Of a stretch of 50,562 bases of DNA, positions 19,162 through 36,940 are shown one piece after another. Location: positions 1 to 50,562 of the IMG/VR virus record IMGVR_UViG_3300009506_000049. One strand, given 5' to 3'. A model generated the notes under the pieces. That model saw nothing but the letters and a program-made list of their open reading frames with translations. It did not search any database and was not told the DNA's origin. Origin of the DNA: a virus. Numbering within the stretch: the first letter of the stretch is position 1; every line of letters begins with the position of its first letter. The position numbers were made by a program, and so were the translations under genes.

Positions 19162-20306
19162 CCAGAATGCTGATCCAGGATCAGCAGATGATGGCACAAC
19201 ATGCACCGGATAACCCCGGTGCTCCTGGTTCTGGGAATATGAAGATCAAATTCACCAATCCAAACATCGATAACTACGAAGGCAACATCAAGTATGCTGC
19301 GCAACTCCACAAGGAGAAGCATATTCAGATGGCCAGCAGAGACTCCCTAAAGGGCCGAAACGCGATCGTCTGCGGAAGCGGTCCATCCCTCAAGGATCCG
19401 AAAGTACTCAAGCGCATAAAGCGCAAGCTCAACAAAGGATATCTACTGTTTGCCTGCAAGGGCGCTATCAAATTCCTATACGAGAAGGGAATCAAGGTCG
19501 ACTATGGTGTCACCATGGACCCGGGAGCCCATATCGCTCGGCCAGATCGAAAGATTTACCGTGCGCCAGGTACCACTCATATCCTCGCAAGCTCGAGCGA
19601 CAAGCTCCTGTTCGATTATATGCTGAGCGAGCTACCGTATGGGGAGTGGCTGAATTCGCTTACCGAGGAAGAGCAGAAGCGGGTACTCATGGCAGACTTT
19701 GACAAGTGGAAGAATGATGGATTCCGCCCTGATGTCTCAAAAGGGAAGCAGCTTGTCGAGGATCATCCAGCAAAGGTGTTGATATTCCACTCGGCAACCG
19801 GTCTGAAGAATGAACTCAACCTCTACAAAACACTATTCTCCGATGGGTCATGCATGGGTGGTGGGTACAACGTAGTCAATCGAGCCATCAGCATCGCACG
19901 GTATATGGGCATAGACCATATCACGCTAGCAGGGGTCGATAGTGGATGGAGAATGAACGACGACTTCTATGTTGACGGTCCAGCGATGATGGACGGAGTC
20001 AATATGTGCGACAACGGCAAGATCGAACTTACCCCGCAGGAGCAGAACGAATATGCAAACATGCTCCAAATCATTGATTCAGAAGAGAAGCTAAACCAGC
20101 TACCGCAGAAGGTGAGGGAGCGCTACAGGGTTCTTAATAGCAAGGTCTGGATGACCAGGCCAGATATGCTCGCCAGTGCAGTAGCCATGGCGAAGATGAT
20201 CAAGAAAGAGCCTGACAGATACGATGTAATCGGCGATGCAATGCCAGCGTTTCTAGTGAAGAAAGACGACGAGTTCCTTGCTAGAGTGGCGAACTTTAAT
20301 GGTTGA
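19128..20306 (+). CDS. DUF115 (Maf/MptE-like) protein
   Basis: The 392-residue protein has the DUF115 signature RNAIVCGSGPSLKDP (about 76-90), then FACKGAIKFLYEKGIKVDYG and GGGYNVVNRAISIARYMG with LAGVDSGW. DUF115 proteins include motility-associated Maf glycosyltransferases, which put nonulosonic acids on flagellin, and archaeal MptE pterin kinases. Here the domain stands alone without the flagellar context. It is placed between the minor head gene module and the scaffold, so transfer of a sugar to a virion protein is a plausible but untested role. GAGGATG precedes the ATG. A weak hairpin (TTGATT/AATCAA) follows the stop. Confidence 0.75.
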   Translation: MGVQFAVPSHITRMLIQDQQMMAQHAPDNPGAPGSGNMKIKFTNPNIDNYEGNIKYAAQLHKEKHIQMASRDSLKGRNAIVCGSGPSLKDPKVLKRIKRKLNKGYLLFACKGAIKFLYEKGIKVDYGVTMDPGAHIARPDRKIYRAPGTTHILASSSDKLLFDYMLSELPYGEWLNSLTEEEQKRVLMADFDKWKNDGFRPDVSKGKQLVEDHPAKVLIFHSATGLKNELNLYKTLFSDGSCMGGGYNVVNRAISIARYMGIDHITLAGVDSGWRMNDDFYVDGPAMMDGVNMCDNGKIELTPQEQNEYANMLQIIDSEEKLNQLPQKVRERYRVLNSKVWMTRPDMLASAVAMAKMIKKEPDRYDVIGDAMPAFLVKKDDEFLARVANFNG

Positions 20307-29902: not shown

Positions 29903-30304
29903 ATGAGTATCGCAACGGCAAGACGGGATATAGAGCTGAGAATGGAAGCGAACTGGGCCACCACCAGGATCGCCATGGCCAACATGCCGTTCACCAAGCC
30001 TGCGTCAGGTGAGTCATGGGTCAAGATCAGGGTATTCGAGGATCGAGCAACAAGAACCAATATCGGCCGGGATGCAGTGCATCGCTACTCTGGCACCATC
30101 GCAGTAGAAATCTACGTGCCTCAAAAAACAGGCACAGGAACCATAAGGGGGTATGCGGATACCATCGCAGAAATATTCAGGGACCAGCAATTCAACGGAA
30201 TCACATGCGAGGAGGCTAGGGTCGTTCCTGTTGGTGATTTTGAAGGGTGGTATCAGATGAATGTCACGGTACCATTTTACTGGGATGGCCGCTATTACGT
30301 ATGA
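29903..30304 (+). CDS. Tail terminator protein (DUF4128-like)
   Basis: The 133-residue protein has an N-terminal helix (MSIATARRDIELRMEANW) then the sheet pattern of tail terminator proteins, with SWVKIRVFEDRATRTNIG, GTIAVEIYVPQKTGTG and a final YQMNVTVPFYWDG. It caps the tail tube and joins it to the neck. The stop overlaps a possible 37-codon gene. Confidence 0.75.
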   Translation: MSIATARRDIELRMEANWATTRIAMANMPFTKPASGESWVKIRVFEDRATRTNIGRDAVHRYSGTIAVEIYVPQKTGTGTIRGYADTIAEIFRDQQFNGITCEEARVVPVGDFEGWYQMNVTVPFYWDGRYYV

Positions 30305-30414
30305 AGTCGTCTACAAGGATCCTCCACGAGACCTTGATCAGACTGGCTAAAGGGATGATCAAGGCATGGGAGGAATGGCTGAAAAAGCAGATACAAGAAG
30401 AAAGGGGTCCGTAG
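30301..30414 (+). CDS. Possible small helical protein, 37 aa
   Basis: A 37-codon frame overlaps the tail terminator stop by 4 bases (ATGA), a common coupling. The product is one basic amphipathic helix (LIRLAKGMIKAWEEWLKKQ). It ends just where the reverse operon begins. Size leaves real doubt. Confidence 0.4.
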   Translation: MKSSTRILHETLIRLAKGMIKAWEEWLKKQIQEERGP

Positions 30415-30420
30415 ACCCCT
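30401..30420 (-). terminator. Hairpin between convergent transcription units
   Basis: A perfect AGGGGTC-CGTA-GACCCCT hairpin sits between the + strand neck genes and the minus-strand operon. On the minus strand it is followed by TTTCTTCTTG, which is T-rich enough for a weak terminator. On the + strand no T-run follows. Confidence 0.5.
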
Positions 30421-30432
30421 AATAGCCGCATC

Positions 30433-30840
30433 CTAATGATCGCGCCTAGGCATGGGTATGACATTACTGATATCCATGCTGTTATGGGATGAAACGGTCG
30501 TATCATGAGATGGGCTCAGAGAAAGAACAGACCGTTCATATAAAGTTGCCTTGACAATATTGGAAATATCAAAATTAAGATCCCGAAGCTCTTCAACCGA
30601 CATCGGTGGCTCTTCACGGAAAGGGCCGTTAAAAAGCATATGGGATACAGCATGGAAGATTAGCGGGGATTTGTTCTGGGGAAGGTTTCTGACATTCATT
30701 CGTGTGCCAATCTTCCCGTCATCGGATGCCTGTATTGCCGCCAGCATAGGTACATCATATTTCTGGCAAAGCGATTGAAGAGCGTCAGCGGCAGCCTCAA
30801 TCTCAGACATTTGTTCAGCAGTGATCTTGTATGGTTTCAT
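30433..30840 (-). CDS. Hypothetical protein of the DUF932 operon, 135 aa
   Basis: The protein starts MKPYKITAEQMSEIEAAADA and has a helix-rich first half and a disordered serine-rich tail (SLSPSHDTTVSSHNSMD) ending MPRRDH. The segment LCQKYDVPMLAAIQASDDGK resembles small phage proteins in which a short sheet follows the first helix. GGAG precedes the minus-strand ATG. Last gene of the reverse operon. Function unknown. Confidence 0.65.
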   Translation of the reverse strand: MKPYKITAEQMSEIEAAADALQSLCQKYDVPMLAAIQASDDGKIGTRMNVRNLPQNKSPLIFHAVSHMLFNGPFREEPPMSVEELRDLNFDISNIVKATLYERSVLSLSPSHDTTVSSHNSMDISNVIPMPRRDH

Positions 30841-30882
30841 AGTAGAATCTCCAGATAAAAAGCCATCCTTGGCACCATGAAA

Positions 30883-31974
30883 TTAGACAGCGAGCTTTTC
30901 AGCCTGCACGGAGTTGACGATACGTTTCCATTCTGAGTTGGTAATATCAAGAATAGCACCACCAAGCTCTTCTAGCTCGGATGCGCGATCATAGGACTCG
31001 GCAGTATTAGCGATCTTCGTTACCGCATTCAGCGCACCCCACTTCGTATAGTCGCGGCCCTCGAGGAGGTTAATCAGGGCACTCTCCTGCTCGGCCAGAG
31101 ATAGGCCAACCACCTTACCGAGAGCCTCAACACCAGCAACAGGGTTCTGCATCTTCTCGGAAGCAGCTGCAGCGCGGAGATGCTCAACCTCCTTCATGAA
31201 CAGATCAGAGGAAGTCGCAGCTTCCACAACATCGGATACCTGAGAGAGAATGAGATCATCCTCCTTGCGCTGAGTATCATCAGAGAATATCTCGTATCCA
31301 GAAGCCGGAGCGACAACCGAACCGGTATGGTAGCGTTTCATACCGAACACATCACGCTTACCAAAGACGCAGCCATTCGTGCAGAAGTCGCGATAGAAGA
31401 AATATTGAACATCGAGGGCGCCTTGGCCGATCTCGCTGTTCGAAATGATCACCCCAGGACGAACCACATCATCCTTGGTTACCTCGGCAACGATATCGGG
31501 GAATAAGGTCTTCAAATACAGTTTCCGGTCAGTAACGTGAGAGGACAACAGGACCGCATTTGAGACGCTGGTGATCGCAGGTAGGGCTACCGCAGCAACC
31601 TGCTCGTTATCGAGGCGACGATAGCGGTCAGAGAGGAAGGCGCGAGCATTGTGGTCAAGGGTACGGATCATACGGCGCTCTGGGTCGCTATCGAACCAGT
31701 GTCGGACATTATCCTTCAACAGTTCCGGAGCCGTTGTGAGCATACGATCATAATACCGCTTGGGGATGCCAATACGCTGCGAAATCTGGCTGTGGGCATG
31801 ATCGGTAATGGCATAGAAACCGTTACCGGGAACATCAAGCACCCATTTCTGATCATCATCTTCACCCACACGATCAAACCCAACCTCGCGGGTATCGATA
31901 ATAAAATCACGCTTCGCATCAGCGCGGCGATTAAGCTCTGCTACCAGAGCATCAAGTTGCATACCTTGTTTCAT
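30883..31974 (-). CDS. DUF932 phage/plasmid-like protein
   Basis: The 363-residue protein has the DUF932 pattern: TDHAHSQISQRIGIPKRYYD, ARAFLSDRYRRLDNEQV, then LSSHVTDRKLYLK and VIISNSEIGQGALDVQYFF, with NGCVFGKRDVFGMKRYHTGS. The family occurs on phages and plasmids and has no settled function, although neighbouring genes often concern DNA metabolism or anti-defence. GGAG lies 8 bases upstream of the minus-strand ATG. It is the largest gene of the reverse operon. Confidence 0.85.
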   Translation of the reverse strand: MKQGMQLDALVAELNRRADAKRDFIIDTREVGFDRVGEDDDQKWVLDVPGNGFYAITDHAHSQISQRIGIPKRYYDRMLTTAPELLKDNVRHWFDSDPERRMIRTLDHNARAFLSDRYRRLDNEQVAAVALPAITSVSNAVLLSSHVTDRKLYLKTLFPDIVAEVTKDDVVRPGVIISNSEIGQGALDVQYFFYRDFCTNGCVFGKRDVFGMKRYHTGSVVAPASGYEIFSDDTQRKEDDLILSQVSDVVEAATSSDLFMKEVEHLRAAAASEKMQNPVAGVEALGKVVGLSLAEQESALINLLEGRDYTKWGALNAVTKIANTAESYDRASELEELGGAILDITNSEWKRIVNSVQAEKLAV

Positions 31975-32081
31975 GGGAAAATCTCCAAGTCATCAACTAG
32001 GCTCGTGTCCCAGCTGCGGCCTGCCATCATCAGCGCACGGTGGCCAATCCGATACGGACTCCCCCTCCGAGGGAGTTTCGG

Positions 32082-32396
32082 CTATTCAGTAAGAGGGATT
32101 ACATAACGGCAATAGTCGTATCCTTGAGTATCTACCAGCAGAAGACCGCGGTTTGAGCGAAGGACAAAATTCTGAGGAACATCCTTCCTATCAAAAGATG
32201 TGAGCATGAATTCCATGAAAGGGAAGGCACCATCAAATAACCAGTCAGCATCAATGAGAGGAAGATCACGTACCTCCGGAAAGAACTCACAAACACGGTC
32301 AATACTCACGTGGTGAGAGTTGCGCACATTATCCCAATTTGCCTTACGGAGAATACGCACATTCATTCGATCAGAAACACGATCAAGTAGTTCCAT
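32082..32396 (-). CDS. Hypothetical protein of the DUF932 operon, 104 aa
   Basis: The frame from MELLDRVSDRMNVRILRKAN (start at 32396 after GGGG) encodes a small alpha/beta protein ending with VLRSNRGLLLVDTQGYDYCR and YVIPL. An earlier in-frame start at 32498 would add a hydrophobic run overlapping the next gene, without a ribosome-binding site. Function unknown. Confidence 0.6.
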   Translation of the reverse strand: MELLDRVSDRMNVRILRKANWDNVRNSHHVSIDRVCEFFPEVRDLPLIDADWLFDGAFPFMEFMLTSFDRKDVPQNFVLRSNRGLLLVDTQGYDYCRYVIPLTE

Positions 32397-32400
32397 GACA

Positions 32401-32592
32401 TTATCCCCTATCGGTAAAAAGTATCGACACCTCGCAAAGAGGCAGGAAGGTAGCGCGGGTATAGGAAACGTCCACGAAATCGAAAAGGACGATAGCATTC
32501 CCTGAACGGGTTATACCGGATAATCTGCCAACCAGGTAAAGACCATCCAACATAAATTTGACGGGCTTACCTATATCTGAGCGACGAACCAT
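32401..32592 (-). CDS. First gene of the DUF932 operon, 63 aa
   Basis: Start MVRRSDIGKPVKFMLDGLYL is chosen because GGAGG lies 8 bases upstream; more distal starts overlap that signal. The product is a small beta-barrel-like protein (GKPVKF, YLVGRLSGITRSGNAIVLFD). It lies about 50 bases downstream of a consensus promoter. Function unknown. Confidence 0.6.
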   Translation of the reverse strand: MVRRSDIGKPVKFMLDGLYLVGRLSGITRSGNAIVLFDFVDVSYTRATFLPLCEVSILFTDRG

Positions 32593-32639
32593 CAGGACAA
32601 CCTCCATTGAGAACAATAACTTCTGTGATGCTGTGAAAA

Positions 32640-32668
32640 AGAATAGTCCAGACATAGGAGCATGTCAA
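32640..32668 (-). promoter_or_regulatory. Consensus sigma-70 promoter for the DUF932 operon
   Basis: Read on the minus strand, TTGACA (complement of 32663-32668) is spaced exactly 17 bases from TATTCT (complement of 32640-32645). This is among the strongest promoter matches in the window and accounts for expression of the four reverse genes. An inverted repeat GACAT/ATGTC covers part of the spacer and may be an operator. Confidence 0.75.
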
Positions 32669-32713
32669 GGAAGGGACACAAAGAAAATGCCAAAAATAAT
32701 ACATGCGCAGTGC

Positions 32714-32742
32714 TTGACATATAGGATATATGCACATAGGAT
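32714..32742 (+). promoter_or_regulatory. Sigma-70 promoter for the large structured RNA
   Basis: TTGACA (32714-32719) is spaced 17 bases from TAGGAT (32737-32742), predicting a start near 32749. It is divergent from the reverse operon promoter about 50 bases away. ACATAGGA occurs in both promoter regions. Confidence 0.7.
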
Positions 32743-33170
32743 CTCACCATCGTTTGGGGTATAAGCCAGGGCAACCTGGGGAAAGGGGTAAAGCCAACAT
32801 AACCCCCTGCCGCAAGGTGGATTCCAAGCAAGCTGAGCTGGGTGGGCATGCCCACCGCTTCGGTTCCTGACCGGAGCAGAGCCATGAGTGATTATGACCA
32901 GTTGCCGTAATAACCAAAGGGTGGCCATCGTGAGATGGTCTGGTTAAAAAGCGAATAGCCGACAGCAAAGGGTAGGTATGTAGTCCGAGCCGGCAAGCAA
33001 GGGCATATGCCAGCACAATCGGCCAGGGTCGAAGGATCCGAGGGTCGTGAAGAGCCGCTAAAGTACCAGGCATGGGAAACGGCATGTGGCGTGTAGCATT
33101 CATGCCCTCAAAAGGGGTGGGAACTACAGACAGGCGCACGTCATAGTTGGTTGCAAGCACCTTGCATAGG

Positions 33171-33244
33171 TGTGAAGTAGCTCAGCAGGTTAGAGCACAC
33201 CATTTGTAATGGTGAGGTCGCAGGTTCAATCCCTGCCTTCATAA
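33171..33244 (+). tRNA. tRNA-Thr (anticodon UGU)
   Basis: All four stems pair: acceptor TGTGAAG/CTTCATA (one G-U), D stem GCTC/GAGC, anticodon stem CACCA/TGGTG with loop TTTGTAA, and T stem GCAGG/CCTGC with loop TTCAATC. Anticodon TGT reads ACA and other ACN codons. The first base is U rather than the usual G, and CCA is not encoded. It lies inside the large structured RNA, so its release would need processing of that transcript. Confidence 0.88.
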
Positions 33245-33581
33245 ATGCGAAAGCAAAAGCGAAAGACGCCTGTCGGCACAAAGCTAAAGTGGCTTAATCC
33301 CACCCCCCTCGGGGAAGGTGAGGTTCCAGAAACTCGCAAGGTGGACGGAATTGATTGGAGGCTGCACACATTGGGAAGGCCAACCCAAGTGGTAAGCTGA
33401 GAATCGAGTAGCGATGTGCGACGAGGGAAACGCCACCCTCTCAGAAAAGGCAGTCACGATCCTTACCAGGTAGCACCTCGGTGTGCTTGGTGGACAAGGC
33501 GAGAACCGGGAGGTGTTGCAGCCATTCGGATAATGCGCCGAAAGAGGATTACGGAAGCCTAAGTCTAGGGCAACTGACCAA

Positions 33582-33612
33582 ACCCTGCGCGATAAAAAGC
33601 GTGGGGTTTTTT
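33582..33612 (+). terminator. Rho-independent terminator of the large RNA
   Basis: ACCCTGCGC pairs with GCGTGGGGT (9 bp with two G-U pairs) around an A-rich 8-base loop and is followed by six T residues. Confidence 0.85.
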
Positions 33613-33621
33613 ATTGCCATA

Positions 33622-33639
33622 AACTAGACATGTCTAGTT
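33622..33639 (+). promoter_or_regulatory. 18-bp palindromic operator candidate
   Basis: AACTAGACATGTCTAGTT is a perfect 9+9 palindrome. It covers the -35 box and half of the spacer of the promoter that would serve the methyltransferase cassette, the classical position for a repressor site. Confidence 0.6.
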
Positions 33640-33653
33640 ATCTAGGCTACAGT
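33625..33653 (+). promoter_or_regulatory. Putative promoter of the methyltransferase cassette
   Basis: TAGACA (33625-33630) is spaced 17 bases from TACAGT (33648-33653). The following 40 bases contain CCAAT/ATTGG and other short pairings, so the leader may be structured. Confidence 0.5.
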
Positions 33654-33693
33654 ATCCAATAGATGCGCTGCATTGGGGAGAAATCGCATTCCC

Positions 33694-33828
33694 ATGTCCT
33701 GGATGGAGTATTCTCTTAGGAGATGTATCGGTGAGAGACCGAATGTGGAGCCGCCAACCAACGCGTTAGTAGCGCAAAGCCATTGTGGACAGGATAGCAG
33801 TAGTAGCGACCTGCCTGCGCATCACTAA
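33694..33828 (+). CDS. Small cassette protein, 44 aa
   Basis: A 44-codon frame (or 41 from ATG 33703) ends with SHCGQDSSSSDLPAHH, whose last part is encoded by the direct repeat. Its TAA overlaps the ATG of the next gene (TAATG). The same DSSSSDLPA is read in frame from the second repeat copy at 35181. I take it as a possibly real cassette gene of unknown role. Confidence 0.4.
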   Translation: MSWMEYSLRRCIGERPNVEPPTNALVAQSHCGQDSSSSDLPAHH

Positions 33829-33833
33829 TGAGT
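33792..33833 (+). repeat. Direct repeat, left copy of the cassette
   Basis: A 42-base unit: GGATAGCAGTAGTAG and onward to ATCACTAATGAGT. Its first 28 bases recur identically at 35180, and its last 25 recur with one mismatch at 35339. It contains the overlapping stop and start of two small genes. Confidence 0.85.
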
Positions 33834-34019
33834 CAATGCGGGAAGCGGTGCGCGTGTGGCGGCACGCTGCACGACTACTCGGTGGACCGGCGTCGCAATA
33901 AGGCGCGGACGTGCCATTGCGACGGGCTATCCCATCCGCATAAGAAGGACTCGACGGTATGGTGCCGACACCATCCGACTAGGCCAACTGACCAGGATTA
34001 TGAGGAGCGTTACCGGTGA
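33828..34019 (+). CDS. Cysteine/histidine-rich zinc-finger-like protein, 63 aa
   Basis: The protein has C-x3-C-x-C (CGKRCAC), then CHCDGLSHPHK and WCRHHP, so about six cysteines and five histidines, a strong sign of zinc binding. The motif CACGG.L..YSVDRRR..K...C.CDG..HPH....WC..HP is familiar from small phage proteins encoded next to DNA methyltransferases. The start is within the direct repeat; the stop overlaps the GTG start of the methyltransferase by 4 bases. Confidence 0.6.
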   Translation: MSQCGKRCACGGTLHDYSVDRRRNKARTCHCDGLSHPHKKDSTVWCRHHPTRPTDQDYEERYR

Positions 34020-35116
34020 CCGCCTACTACAACGAGAAAGACAAATTCGCGGCCGCATGGCTGCGTGAACTAATCAGAATGGGGCAGATCGCTCCGGGGG
34101 TAGTTGATGAACGATCAATCGAAGATATCGTGCCAGCAGATCTTGAGGGATACACTCAGTGCCATTTTTTCGCCGGAATCGGAGTATGGTCCTACGCATT
34201 ACGCCGAGCAGGTTGGCCTGATGATCGACCTGTATGGACGGGATCTTGTCCTTGCCAACCTTTCAGCGCGGCAGGCAAAGCTGGCGGGTTTACTGACGAG
34301 CGGCATCTATGGCCACACTGGATCCACCTCATCCAATACGGAAAACCAAAAGCGGTCCCAGTCCTTGGCGAGCAGGTTGCGAGCAAGGACGGCCTCGGTT
34401 GGCTCGACCTTGTACAAACTGACATGGAAGGAGCGGGCTACGCCTGCGGAGCGGTCGATCTCTGCGCTGCGGGCGTCGGTGCGCCGCACATCCGGCAGCG
34501 CCTCTTCTTCGTTGCCGAGTGGTTGGGTGACTCCAAGCGCGAGGGACTGGAAGGACAGCGGGGCGGATATAACGCCGCGCAAGGACACGGGGAAAGAGCG
34601 CTTCGACCAGTTACCGAGGCAGGCGAATTTGGCGGGATGGCCGACACCATGCCAGCAGGACGGGCCGAAGGGTGGGCCGGGGCAGGGGATGGACCGATTG
34701 CCGGGTGCGGTGAGCCTGGCGGGGTGGCCGACACCGACCGCGAATCAACCAGGCGGGACAGCCGAAGCGCATGTGGCCCGCAAACTGGCGATGGGGCGAA
34801 AAACAGCGACGATAACCGACCTACGGATGATGGCGGAGACGGTAGGCCCGGCCCGACTAACGGCCTCTGGGCAGATGCTGACTGGCTCTACTGCCGGGAT
34901 GGAAAGTGGCGGCCAGTTGAACCCGGCACATTCCCGCTGGTTGATGGGACTGCCGAAAAGCTGGTGCGAGGCAGCGATCCAGGCGTGGACAGTGACGTCG
35001 CGCAAACCGCGAAAGCGCGGACGGGACGATTGAAAGGATATGGAAACGCCATTAACGCGGAAGTCGCCACGGCGTTCATCGAAGCGTACATGACCAAAGG
35101 CTATGATGCAGCGTAA
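34016..35116 (+). CDS. dcm: DNA (cytosine-5) methyltransferase
   Basis: The 366-residue protein has the C5-methyltransferase motifs in order: motif [13 protein letters not shown] (51-62), motif [16 protein letters not shown] (75-88) with catalytic Cys 80, a diverged motif VI LGEQV (117-121), motif [17 protein letters not shown] (155-167), and motif X GYGNAI (341-346) after a variable, glycine and aspartate-rich recognition region. It would methylate cytosines in a short target, typically protecting phage DNA from restriction. GTG 34016 follows AGGAG. Base composition is visibly more GC-rich than neighbours. A second long protein is encoded in another frame over most of its length. Confidence 0.88.
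34107..35033 (+). CDS. Protein overprinted on the methyltransferase gene, 308 aa
   Basis: A 308-codon frame lies entirely inside the methyltransferase gene, in a different + frame. It is not a random shadow: it carries [40 protein letters not shown], repeated GW-TP motifs ([35 protein letters not shown]) and ends with [20 protein letters not shown] then [14 protein letters not shown] recognise this pattern from a conserved family in proteobacterial prophages, where it likewise accompanies cytosine methyltransferases. Function unknown. ATG 34107 has only a G-rich stretch upstream. Both frames look intact, so the DNA appears dual-coding. Confidence 0.65.
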
Positions 35117-35249
35117 CATCCAGCTCGTGCTCGGTGGCCCCGGTACCGGCAAAACGACCCACTTCGTCGGCCGAGACGCGGATAGCAGTAGTAGCGACCT
35201 GCCTGCGTATCGCTCTTTAACAACAAATACTCATCAGGATGCGCTGTAG
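35103..35249 (+). pseudogene. Truncated P-loop ATPase/helicase start
   Basis: The frame opens with [20 protein letters not shown], a perfect Walker A (GGPGTGKTT) as in UvrD-type helicases that follow methyltransferase genes in other phages. After 25 codons the sequence runs straight into the direct repeat (DSSSSDLPA) and stops at 48 residues, so only the amino end survives. The junction at 35180 marks the recombination point that shaped the cassette. Confidence 0.65.
35180..35207 (+). repeat. Direct repeat, right copy (first part)
   Basis: 28 bases identical to 33792-33819, fused to the broken P-loop gene. The repeat continuation is lost after this point. Confidence 0.85.
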
Positions 35250-35338
35250 CTTCTGGAAAGCCTTACCCATGCAGAACAAAGAAGCAATCTAGGTAATGCG
35301 ATAGGAATGGGGCATCGAATCATTATCGCAGGCTGATA

Positions 35339-35363
35339 ACCTGCCAGCGCATCACTAATGAGT
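35339..35363 (+). repeat. Direct repeat, right copy (second part)
   Basis: 25 bases matching 33809-33833 with one mismatch, including the TAATGAGT stop-start. It directly precedes tRNA-Gln. With the copy at 35180 it reconstitutes the left repeat, interrupted by about 130 bases. Confidence 0.8.
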
Positions 35364-35369
35364 GTTTAT

Positions 35370-35445
35370 ACGCCTGTAGTTCAATTGGCAGAACACCGCA
35401 CTTTGATTGCGGTGGTTGATGGTTCGATCCCATACAGGCGTGCCA
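35370..35445 (+). tRNA. tRNA-Gln (anticodon UUG)
   Basis: The acceptor stem ACGCCTG/CAGGCGT pairs perfectly, followed by discriminator G and an encoded CCA. D stem GTTC/GAAC; anticodon stem CCGCA/TGCGG with loop CTTTGAT giving TTG; T stem GATGG/CCATA with one mismatch and loop TTCGATC. Confidence 0.88.
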
Positions 35446-35451
35446 AGCAAT

Positions 35452-35528
35452 GTTGGCGTAGACAAGCGGTCTAAGCCACCACCCTTTCACGGTGCGAATC
35501 ATGGGTTCGAATCCCATCGCCAACACCA
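35452..35528 (+). tRNA. tRNA-Glu (anticodon UUC)
   Basis: The acceptor stem GTTGGCG/CGCCAAC pairs perfectly, with discriminator A and encoded CCA. Anticodon arm CACC-CTTTCAC-GGTG gives TTC, as in bacterial tRNA-Glu; T arm ATGGG/CCCAT with TTCGAAT. The D arm is irregular. Six bases separate it from tRNA-Gln. Confidence 0.8.
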
Positions 35529-35615
35529 AACCCGGGATGACTGCTGGCCTTCCAAATGGGTGGGATCACGGCTAACGCCTAACGCAGTGACACATCGGAG
35601 AGACGATGATGCAAC

Positions 35616-35636
35616 ACCCCACTCCGGTGGGGTTTT
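35616..35636 (+). terminator. Rho-independent terminator before the tail operon
   Basis: A 7-bp stem ACCCCAC/GTGGGGT with a TCCG loop and TTTT ends transcription of the tRNA region. The T-run partly overlaps the -35 box of the tail promoter. Confidence 0.8.
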
Positions 35637-35663
35637 GTATTTCTGGCGATCGCCTTCTATAAT
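35635..35663 (+). promoter_or_regulatory. Sigma-70 promoter of the tail operon
   Basis: TTGTAT (35635-35640) is spaced 17 bases from a perfect TATAAT (35658-35663). It directly follows a terminator and is about 90 bases from the tail tube gene. Confidence 0.7.
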
Positions 35664-35712
35664 CCATAAAACGGGTTCGCGGATAGTCTCGCTCAAAAGC
35701 CACACTATCCAT

Positions 35713-35748
35713 CTGCCTCCCTGTAACAGAACCCAATACAGGAGGCAG
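35713..35748 (+). promoter_or_regulatory. Hairpin covering the tail tube ribosome-binding site
   Basis: CTGCCT-c-CCTGT (35713-35724) can pair with ACAGG-AGGCAG (35738-35748), 11 pairs with a single bulge. The AGGAGG Shine-Dalgarno of the tail tube gene is inside the 3-prime arm, so translation may depend on opening of this hairpin. Confidence 0.6.
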
Positions 35749-35752
35749 GACC

Positions 35753-36940
35753 ATGGCATTCGCAGACGCAAACCGCACTGGGCTACGCTATGTAGCTGAA
35801 ACAACCTGGGGTACTACGCCTGCAGGTCCAGTCATGAAAGCGCTCAACCTTACCGGTGAGAGCCTAAAATCTTCCAACACTACCGTTACCTCGGACACCA
35901 TCCGTGACGATCGCAACATATCTGACATCACCGTAGTAGGTGGCGGTGCCGGTGGCGATGGCGCATTCGAACTCCGCTACGGTGACGTAGATGATCTGTT
36001 TGAAGCAACCCTACAGGGTACCTGGGTAGAGACCATCGCCTCTGCAGGGGTGGCCAATGTAAACGTATCAGCTGCTGTTATCGAGGCGGATAGCTCTGCG
36101 CTCGTTAACGTCTTGGCAGACCAGGTCGTCAGGGTATCCCTATGCAGCACAACCGCAAATGATGGAGATTTCATCGTCACCGCAGTATCTACAGTGGCCG
36201 GCACTACCCGCCTACATGTAGCAGACGCATCAACAGGAGTCGCAGCGGCCTTCACCTCTGAAACATTCGACGCAACACATGGCCGTGTCTACGGCAAAAA
36301 CCTCCGAAATGGGGTCGTTAGCCGCAGCTTTACGATCGAAAAGTCGCATGGTGACGTCGGGCTCATTGCCCTGTACACCGGCATGCGAGCAACTACGCTG
36401 AACCTATCGCTTGAGAGCCAAAAGATCCTTATGGGTTCCTTCGGGTTCACCGGTAAGGGGCAGACCATATCATCCACTACCGTTGCCTCTGCGGTAACCG
36501 CGGCCAGCACCAACGATGTAATGAATGCCAGCGGCAACGTCACCCGTCTGTGGGAGGGTGGAGATGCCGTGACCAGCATCGCATTCAGTAAGCTCACGCT
36601 ATCGCTGAACAACAATCCTCGGGAACAATCCAAAGTCGGCAGTGATGTGCTAACAGGAGTGGCAACCGGACGATGCCAGATTACCGGTACATTCTCTGCG
36701 TACTTCGAGAACAAGAATCTGATCGACAAATTCGTTAACGGTACCGCGACTAGCCTGCGATTCCAAGTACAGGACGCATCAGGTAATGCCTACATCGTAT
36801 CGATCCCCAAAGTTCGACTGACCGACATGACCGTAGTGGCCGGTGGGCCGAATACGGACGTCATGCAGGACGGCACATGGGGAGCAATGGTAAACACCGG
36901 AGGGCTTTATGCCATCCAGATCGATTCCCTGAACGGGTAA
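35753..36940 (+). CDS. Major tail tube protein
   Basis: The 395-residue protein starts FADANRTGLRYVAETTWGTT, the signature opening of the tail tube family with LRYV.E..wGttP....; ESLKSSNTTVTSDTIRDDRN and GDGAFELRYGDVDDLFEATL follow. The later half has beta-sandwich strands and ends TGGLYAIQIDSLNG. It polymerises into the siphovirus tail tube around the tape measure. Position directly before the chaperone pair and tape measure agrees. It has its own terminator-promoter pair and a sequestered AGGAGG. Confidence 0.88.
   Translation: MAFADANRTGLRYVAETTWGTTPAGPVMKALNLTGESLKSSNTTVTSDTIRDDRNISDITVVGGGAGGDGAFELRYGDVDDLFEATLQGTWVETIASAGVANVNVSAAVIEADSSALVNVLADQVVRVSLCSTTANDGDFIVTAVSTVAGTTRLHVADASTGVAAAFTSETFDATHGRVYGKNLRNGVVSRSFTIEKSHGDVGLIALYTGMRATTLNLSLESQKILMGSFGFTGKGQTISSTTVASAVTAASTNDVMNASGNVTRLWEGGDAVTSIAFSKLTLSLNNNPREQSKVGSDVLTGVATGRCQITGTFSAYFENKNLIDKFVNGTATSLRFQVQDASGNAYIVSIPKVRLTDMTVVAGGPNTDVMQDGTWGAMVNTGGLYAIQIDSLNG

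What the first reader, a model, noticed from the sequence alone, without database searches (positions are those of the whole stretch)
32714..33612. Giant structured non-coding RNA with a tRNA embedded in it
About 865 bases between a TTGACA-17-TAGGAT promoter and a strong terminator have no credible protein gene but a dense set of perfect helices and GNRA tetraloops (GCAA at 32771, GTGA at 32930, GAAA near 33247), including long-range nested pairing (33391-33467). An intact tRNA-Thr (33171-33244) is inserted and closed by GCAT/ATGC. Established: GOLLD and ROOL are giant phage RNAs, often near tRNA genes, of unknown function. Inference: this is a member or an unrecognised relative, transcribed independently of the structural operons and able to deliver a tRNA by processing.
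Basis: partly seen in the sequence, partly recalled or inferred. Interest (0 to 1): 0.9.

Follow-up and report, generated by a model that had tools for sequence, protein, structure and literature searches.

The report
Phage GOLLD RNA carrying a tRNA
This stretch of a phage genome makes a GOLLD RNA, a known giant RNA whose studied member assembles into hollow cages, and it carries a complete transfer RNA in the loop that would face the inside of the cage; that arrangement is known, but this is the only one of 11 lineages compared here in which the carried tRNA still looks fully intact.

Summary
Between a TTGACA-17-TAGGAT promoter (32714-32742) and an intrinsic terminator (33580-33609) lies a ~0.83-kb structured non-coding RNA with an intact tRNA-Thr(UGU) at 33171-33244. 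It is a GOLLD RNA, not a new class. Rfam's GOLLD model matches end to end (33084-33572, 136.6 bits, E=1.8e-37), though below the curated cut-off of 150 bits. Helices of the 3' domain covary across relatives. Two covariance models of the 5' domain, built without the window, hit it in the right order and place (E ~9e-7 and 6e-6). There is no ROOL match. The tRNA sits exactly in the GOLLD linker, which cryo-EM of another GOLLD places inside a 14-mer RNA cage; tRNAs there are already reported. New here: among 11 GOLLD lineages with a detectable linker tRNA, only the window's has a complete 7-bp acceptor stem (free-standing tRNAs: 323/382; p~1.5e-7, post hoc). The others have frayed acceptor ends and sometimes odd anticodons, while sister pairs keep the arms paired by compensatory changes. 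So most linker tRNAs look like kept tRNA-shaped domains rather than tRNAs to be released; release remains possible for the window's copy, unproven. Verdict: new, divergent member of a known kind.

The parts
32714..32742 (+). sigma-70-type promoter, TTGACA-17-TAGGAT; predicted start of the RNA about 32748-32750
   Evidence: the 5'-domain model match begins at 32748
32748..33083 (+). GOLLD 5' domain
   Evidence: independent models R1 (32748-32833, 31.7 bits, E 9.2e-07) and R2 (32964-33044, 25.8 bits, E 6e-06), built without the window; covariation in A2
33084..33572 (+). GOLLD 3' domain, interrupted by the linker with the tRNA
   Evidence: RF02032, 136.6 bits, E 1.8e-37, model 1-416 of 416; covariation in A1
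33143..33249 (+). GOLLD variable linker (107 nt), between GCACGTC (33136-33142) and AAAGCAAAAG (33250-33259); position of the disordered cage-interior linker in the cryo-EM structure of GOLLD env-38
   Evidence: PMC12286853
33171..33244 (+). intact tRNA-Thr (anticodon UGU), full 7-bp acceptor stem, no encoded CCA
33580..33609 (+). intrinsic terminator, 11-pair stem followed by T-rich tail

Best explanation
A full-length (~0.83 kb) GOLLD non-coding RNA of a tailed siphovirus, made from its own promoter and ended by its own terminator. Shown by comparison: it has the GOLLD 5' and 3' domains, and the tRNA-Thr cloverleaf occupies the linker between the first hairpin of the 3' domain and the rest. 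Inferred from the solved homologue: chains assemble into a closed RNA-only cage (14-mer in env-38) whose linkers point inwards, so each cage would hold up to 14 tethered tRNA cloverleaves. Inferred from comparative evidence: the linker is a slot in which a tRNA fold is kept as a tethered domain, most likely to hold or attract something that recognises tRNA shape (for example a tRNA-acting enzyme or ribosome-associated factor), rather than a means of supplying decoding tRNA; the window's copy is the least altered example. My estimates: GOLLD identity about 0.98, cage with tRNA inside about 0.75, tethered-domain role about 0.4.
For: Full-length RF02032 match, E 1.8e-37, repeated at 9.8e-40 in a one-genome search with no hit in 14 control genomes. 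3' domain: 60 consensus pairs, 46 with at least one compensatory change; the window keeps 49 of 60, 17 of them changed on both sides relative to its relatives; Rfam's own structure on the MAFFT alignment pairs 74.3% of cells against 62.7% shuffled and 33-45% when slid, covariation score 0.335 against 0.140, 0/500. 5' domain: 94.7% of cells paired, covariation 0.468 against 0.188, 0/500; models built without the window find it as top hits in the correct order, and R1 also finds the 5' domains of other, tRNA-less GOLLD loci. tRNA in the same slot in ten other lineages. Full 7-bp acceptor stem in 1 of 11 linker-tRNA lineages against 323 of 382 free tRNAs; sister pairs GD86/L162 and Rey/Estes show four compensatory double changes and none broken in D, anticodon and T stems. 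Cage and inward linker: PMC12286853.
Against: The score is below Rfam's gathering cut-off (136.6 against 150). Eleven of 60 consensus pairs are not formed by the window in this alignment, and part of the central 3' domain aligns poorly. No expression, oligomer or cage was tested; the cage comes from one homologue. The acceptor-end comparison is post hoc and small, lineages were collapsed by eye, and the window itself is the exception to it. With its leader included, the predicted minimum-energy fold of the window's linker is not a cloverleaf.
Confidence: 0.8

Rival explanations
1. The GOLLD transcript is a carrier: RNase P and the 3' tRNA-processing enzymes cut the tRNA out, and it is used in translation during infection.
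For: The window's cloverleaf is intact with 7 acceptor pairs and a good U33/UGU loop; two other phage tRNAs lie 2 kb downstream. RNase P acts on tRNA shape in general (general knowledge).
Against: All ten other linker lineages have a frayed acceptor end, some with A34 anticodons (AUG, AAU) or 8-nt anticodon loops, which is not expected if the tRNA is usually delivered. Excision would split the RNA inside its 3' domain. Expression of the mycobacterial GOLLD pseudo-tRNA was not detected (PMC6582537).
Confidence: 0.3
2. The tRNA is a neutral passenger: GOLLD genes lie in tRNA-gene neighbourhoods, tRNA genes recombine into the length-tolerant linker now and then, and then decay.
For: Linkers are variable in length and most have no tRNA (2 of 81 pattern-matched IMG/VR GOLLD loci have one); degenerate remnants exist in Bongovirus and L143; GOLLD genes are often beside tRNA clusters.
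Against: Compensatory changes keep the arms paired in two sister pairs, and the fraying is concentrated at acceptor pairs 1-2 rather than spread over the cloverleaf.
Confidence: 0.3
3. A new giant RNA class unrelated to GOLLD, or a chance structure.
For: The match is below the Rfam cut-off and no DNA-level relative is found in phage or plasmid records outside the tRNA.
Against: Full-length model match at E 1.8e-37, covariation over both domains, and independent 5'-domain models.
Confidence: 0.01

Closest known systems
GOLLD RNA (Rfam RF02032); Mclasvirinae mycobacteriophage and M. abscessus prophage forms, and L030 (IMGVR_UViG_3300044699_000008)
   Same: Both domains, the same conserved motifs (UCAAAAG hairpin, GCACGUC, AAAGCAAAAG, CUCGCAAGG, GUGGA-AAG, AUAAU), and a tRNA in the same linker slot; L030 shares a 25-of-26-nt match in the 5' domain.
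   Different: More divergent (136.6 bits against 160-335 for most); longer linker flank on the 5' side; the only linker tRNA with a full acceptor stem; the phage's capsid resembles those of Vibrio and other Gram-negative siphoviruses rather than mycobacteriophages.
GOLLD env-38 (cryo-EM 14-mer, PMC12286853)
   Same: 5' domain followed by a conserved 3' domain, with a variable linker.
   Different: env-38 has a 42-nt disordered linker; here a 107-nt linker with a tRNA; oligomer not tested here, and the env-38 sequence itself was not compared.
ROOL RNA
   Same: Giant phage RNA that forms a cage, often near tRNA genes.
   Different: No ROOL match at E up to 10.

Membership tests
GOLLD (RF02032) | 3' domain matching the covariance model end to end | tested here: met
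   33084-33572, model 1-416/416, E 1.8e-37
GOLLD (RF02032) | Rfam gathering score of 150 bits (a curator's cut-off, not a biological feature) | tested here: not met
   136.6 bits. L146 (138.2) and the record of L147 (138.3) lie in the same range. L151, also with a tRNA insert, scores 226.4, so divergence and not the insert alone lowers the score.
GOLLD (RF02032) | covarying helices of the 3' domain | tested here: met
   the window keeps 49 of 60 pairs, 17 changed on both sides
GOLLD (RF02032) | less conserved structured 5' domain upstream | tested here: met
   models R1 and R2 built without the window; covariation
GOLLD (RF02032) | variable linker, sometimes holding a tRNA | tested here: met
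   tRNA-Thr aligned to the model's variable stretch; same slot in relatives
GOLLD (RF02032) | phage or prophage gene, often near tRNA genes | tested here: met
   portal, capsid and tail genes in the record; tRNA-Gln and tRNA-Glu at 35370-35528
GOLLD (RF02032) | homo-14-mer RNA cage | not testable with these tools
   needs purified RNA, mass photometry or cryo-EM
GOLLD (RF02032) | expression rising during the lytic phase | not testable with these tools
   no transcriptome available
ROOL | match to the ROOL covariance model | tested here: not met
   none at E up to 10 over 31900-34100
functional tRNA-Thr | complete cloverleaf with 7-bp acceptor stem and UGU anticodon | tested here: met
functional tRNA-Thr | release, CCA addition and charging | not testable with these tools
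   no CCA is encoded; needs tRNA-seq and acid-gel northern

The most novel reading that the evidence does not exclude
In a branch of GOLLD RNAs the cage-interior linker is a dedicated slot for a tRNA-shaped domain whose arms are kept by selection while its acceptor end and anticodon are not: a tethered tRNA mimic, up to 14 per cage, acting as bait or lock for a tRNA-recognising host factor. The window is the intact, least altered form and shows what was captured.
Probability: 0.3. Interest if true: 0.8.

Novelty: new member of a known kind. Interest (0 to 1): 0.5.

Why it matters
GOLLD has no known function. A member with an intact tRNA, beside relatives with altered ones, gives a clean pair for asking whether the cage releases, stores or displays tRNA. 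The observation that linker tRNAs keep their arms but lose acceptor pairs 1-2 narrows the hypotheses that Kretsch et al. left open (phage tRNAs, ribosomes, metabolites or proteins inside the cage), and the window's copy is a natural test case.

Tried and rejected
Protein-coding reading of 32714-33612: no convincing Pfam or PHROGs match. ROOL: no match. DNA-level relatives in INPHARED and PLSDB: only tRNA matches, or none. Relatives of the phage through the tail tube and DUF932 proteins: L096-L098 have no GOLLD and no tRNA; L097 shares genes on both sides but has other small genes in the gap, so GOLLD lies in an accessory island. Pattern hits without an Rfam match: L009, L017, L021, L026 and L032 look like chance matches, four of them one repeated phage sequence; L060, L061, L091 and L092 look like GOLLD ends cut at contig borders. 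GCAT/ATGC closure of the tRNA: not conserved. The genome-contig scan gave 22 hits, judged mostly chance from their spacing and not followed. The L101/L170 T-stem comparison was misaligned by me and is not used.

Full report
Check of the observation. The promoter (32714-32742) and terminator (33580-33609) are as described. ARAGORN and Rfam both find tRNA-Thr(UGU) at 33171-33244. The RNA folds better than shuffles (z -4.1, 20 shuffles). No overlapping ORF tested has a convincing protein family match. Small corrections are listed in the observation check.

What it is. With a permissive threshold Rfam's GOLLD model (RF02032) matches 33084-33572 over all 416 positions, 136.6 bits, E 1.8e-37; the default scan missed it because the curated cut-off is 150 bits. 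The tRNA falls in the model's variable, unpaired linker. No other giant-RNA family matches.

Independent support. I collected GOLLD loci from IMG/VR by DNA patterns, confirmed them with RF02032, and added named phages. On a MAFFT alignment of 20 3' domains (A1), RNAalifold gives 60 pairs, 46 with compensatory changes. The window keeps 49, of which 17 are changed on both sides relative to the commonest pair. Rfam's structure, mapped through the window's own alignment to the model and therefore leaning towards it, still beats every shuffle and all slid versions. The 5' domain (A2) covaries as well. As a test not depending on the window, two covariance models were built from the other sequences only (R1, R2). 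In the 50.6-kb window they hit 32748-32833 (E 9.2e-07) and 32964-33044 (E 6e-06) as best matches, in the right order on the right strand; E-values from these short calibrations are rough. R1 also hits GOLLD loci L100, L104, L108, L109, L111 and L112 upstream of their 3' domains. So the RNA is a full-length GOLLD, beginning where the promoter predicts.

Closest relative. L030 (a 46.9-kb IMG/VR contig) shares a 25-of-26-nt match in the 5' domain and also has a linker tRNA. The two phages show no shared proteins in the stretch compared by tblastn, although both have a DUF932 gene within 3 kb of GOLLD.

Genome context. The record is a siphovirus with portal, capsid, tail tube, tape measure and tail genes; its capsid is closest to Vibrio and other Gram-negative phages, at 47% identity. 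GOLLD lies in an island (about 30.3-35.75 kb) between the tail terminator and tail tube genes, with DUF932, a hammerhead ribozyme, a cytosine methylase and two more tRNAs. A relative (L097) with homologous genes on both sides has no GOLLD there.

The linker tRNA. Of 81 pattern-matched IMG/VR GOLLD loci only two have an ARAGORN-detectable tRNA in the linker, but it is common in the actinobacteriophage branch: prophi86-1, prophiT49-2, prophiGD54-2, Rey, Estes, L101, L103, L162 and L170, besides L030, L059, L168 and L178. Bongovirus and L143 linkers look like tRNA remnants by eye. The detectable ones form about 11 lineages (collapsed by eye). ARAGORN's own base-pair strings show the full 7-bp acceptor stem in only one, the window, against 323 of 382 unique free-standing tRNAs from the fetched loci (Fisher p about 1.5e-7 with collapsed lineages). 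Losses are mostly at pairs 1-2. Several have anticodons unusual in bacteria (AUG, AAU) or 8-nt anticodon loops, or Leu/Ser-type anticodons without the long variable arm. Yet in two sister pairs the D, anticodon and T stems differ by four compensatory double changes with none broken. This suggests the fold, not the decoding tRNA, is kept. The comparison was thought of after seeing the data and is small.

Mechanism. Shown: sequence and structural homology, the slot, promoter and terminator sequences. From the literature: GOLLD env-38 forms a 14-mer cage with the linker inside, tRNAs are sometimes present in the linker, and ribosomes were pulled down with GOLLD (PMC12286853); [quoted passage not shown] a pseudo-tRNA in a mycobacterial GOLLD was not detectably expressed (PMC6582537). 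Inferred: this RNA forms such a cage with tethered tRNA cloverleaves inside. I favour a tethered tRNA-shaped domain (about 0.4) over delivery of decoding tRNA (about 0.3) and a neutral passenger (about 0.3). The window's intact copy is the best candidate for delivery, so the issue is open for it. In silico the leader hairpin GCACCU/AGGUGU competes with its acceptor stem, which I regard as weak evidence.

Novelty. A new, divergent member of a known RNA family; the tRNA-in-linker arrangement is already described. The comparative fraying of linker tRNAs is, as far as the papers held here show, not described, but the original GOLLD paper (Weinberg 2009) and Morgado 2020 were not available to read.

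Noticed in passing
window 32015-32083 (-): Type II hammerhead ribozyme, 43.6 bits (cut-off 37), on the same strand between ORF 32082-32498(-) and the DUF932 gene 30883-31974(-), so it could cut the 5' leader of the DUF932 mRNA.
   Followed up: no
window 33622-33639: 18-bp perfect palindrome AACTAGACATGTCTAGTT just after the GOLLD terminator, the longest perfect palindrome in the window and without a second exact copy; possibly an operator.
   Followed up: partly
window 30300-35750: Accessory island between tail terminator and tail tube genes, replaced by other small genes in the relative L097.
   Followed up: partly
L059 5865-5938 (-) (= L148 491-564): GOLLD linker tRNA with a CUA (amber) anticodon, in an 87-kb phage contig with many other tRNAs and a tmRNA.
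   Followed up: no
window 30883-31974 (-) and L030 9487-10752 (-): DUF932 genes within 3 kb of GOLLD in both the window and its closest GOLLD relative; whether this is more than chance was not tested.
   Followed up: no
record of L018 (G016), 19736-20149 and 36280-36673 (-): One phage contig with two separate full-length GOLLD 3' domains (311.9 and 322 bits).
   Followed up: no
window 33640-34015: About 380 bases with no confident gene between the GOLLD terminator and the methylase gene; a 63-aa ORF (33828-34019) has a weak PHROGs match of unknown function.
   Followed up: no
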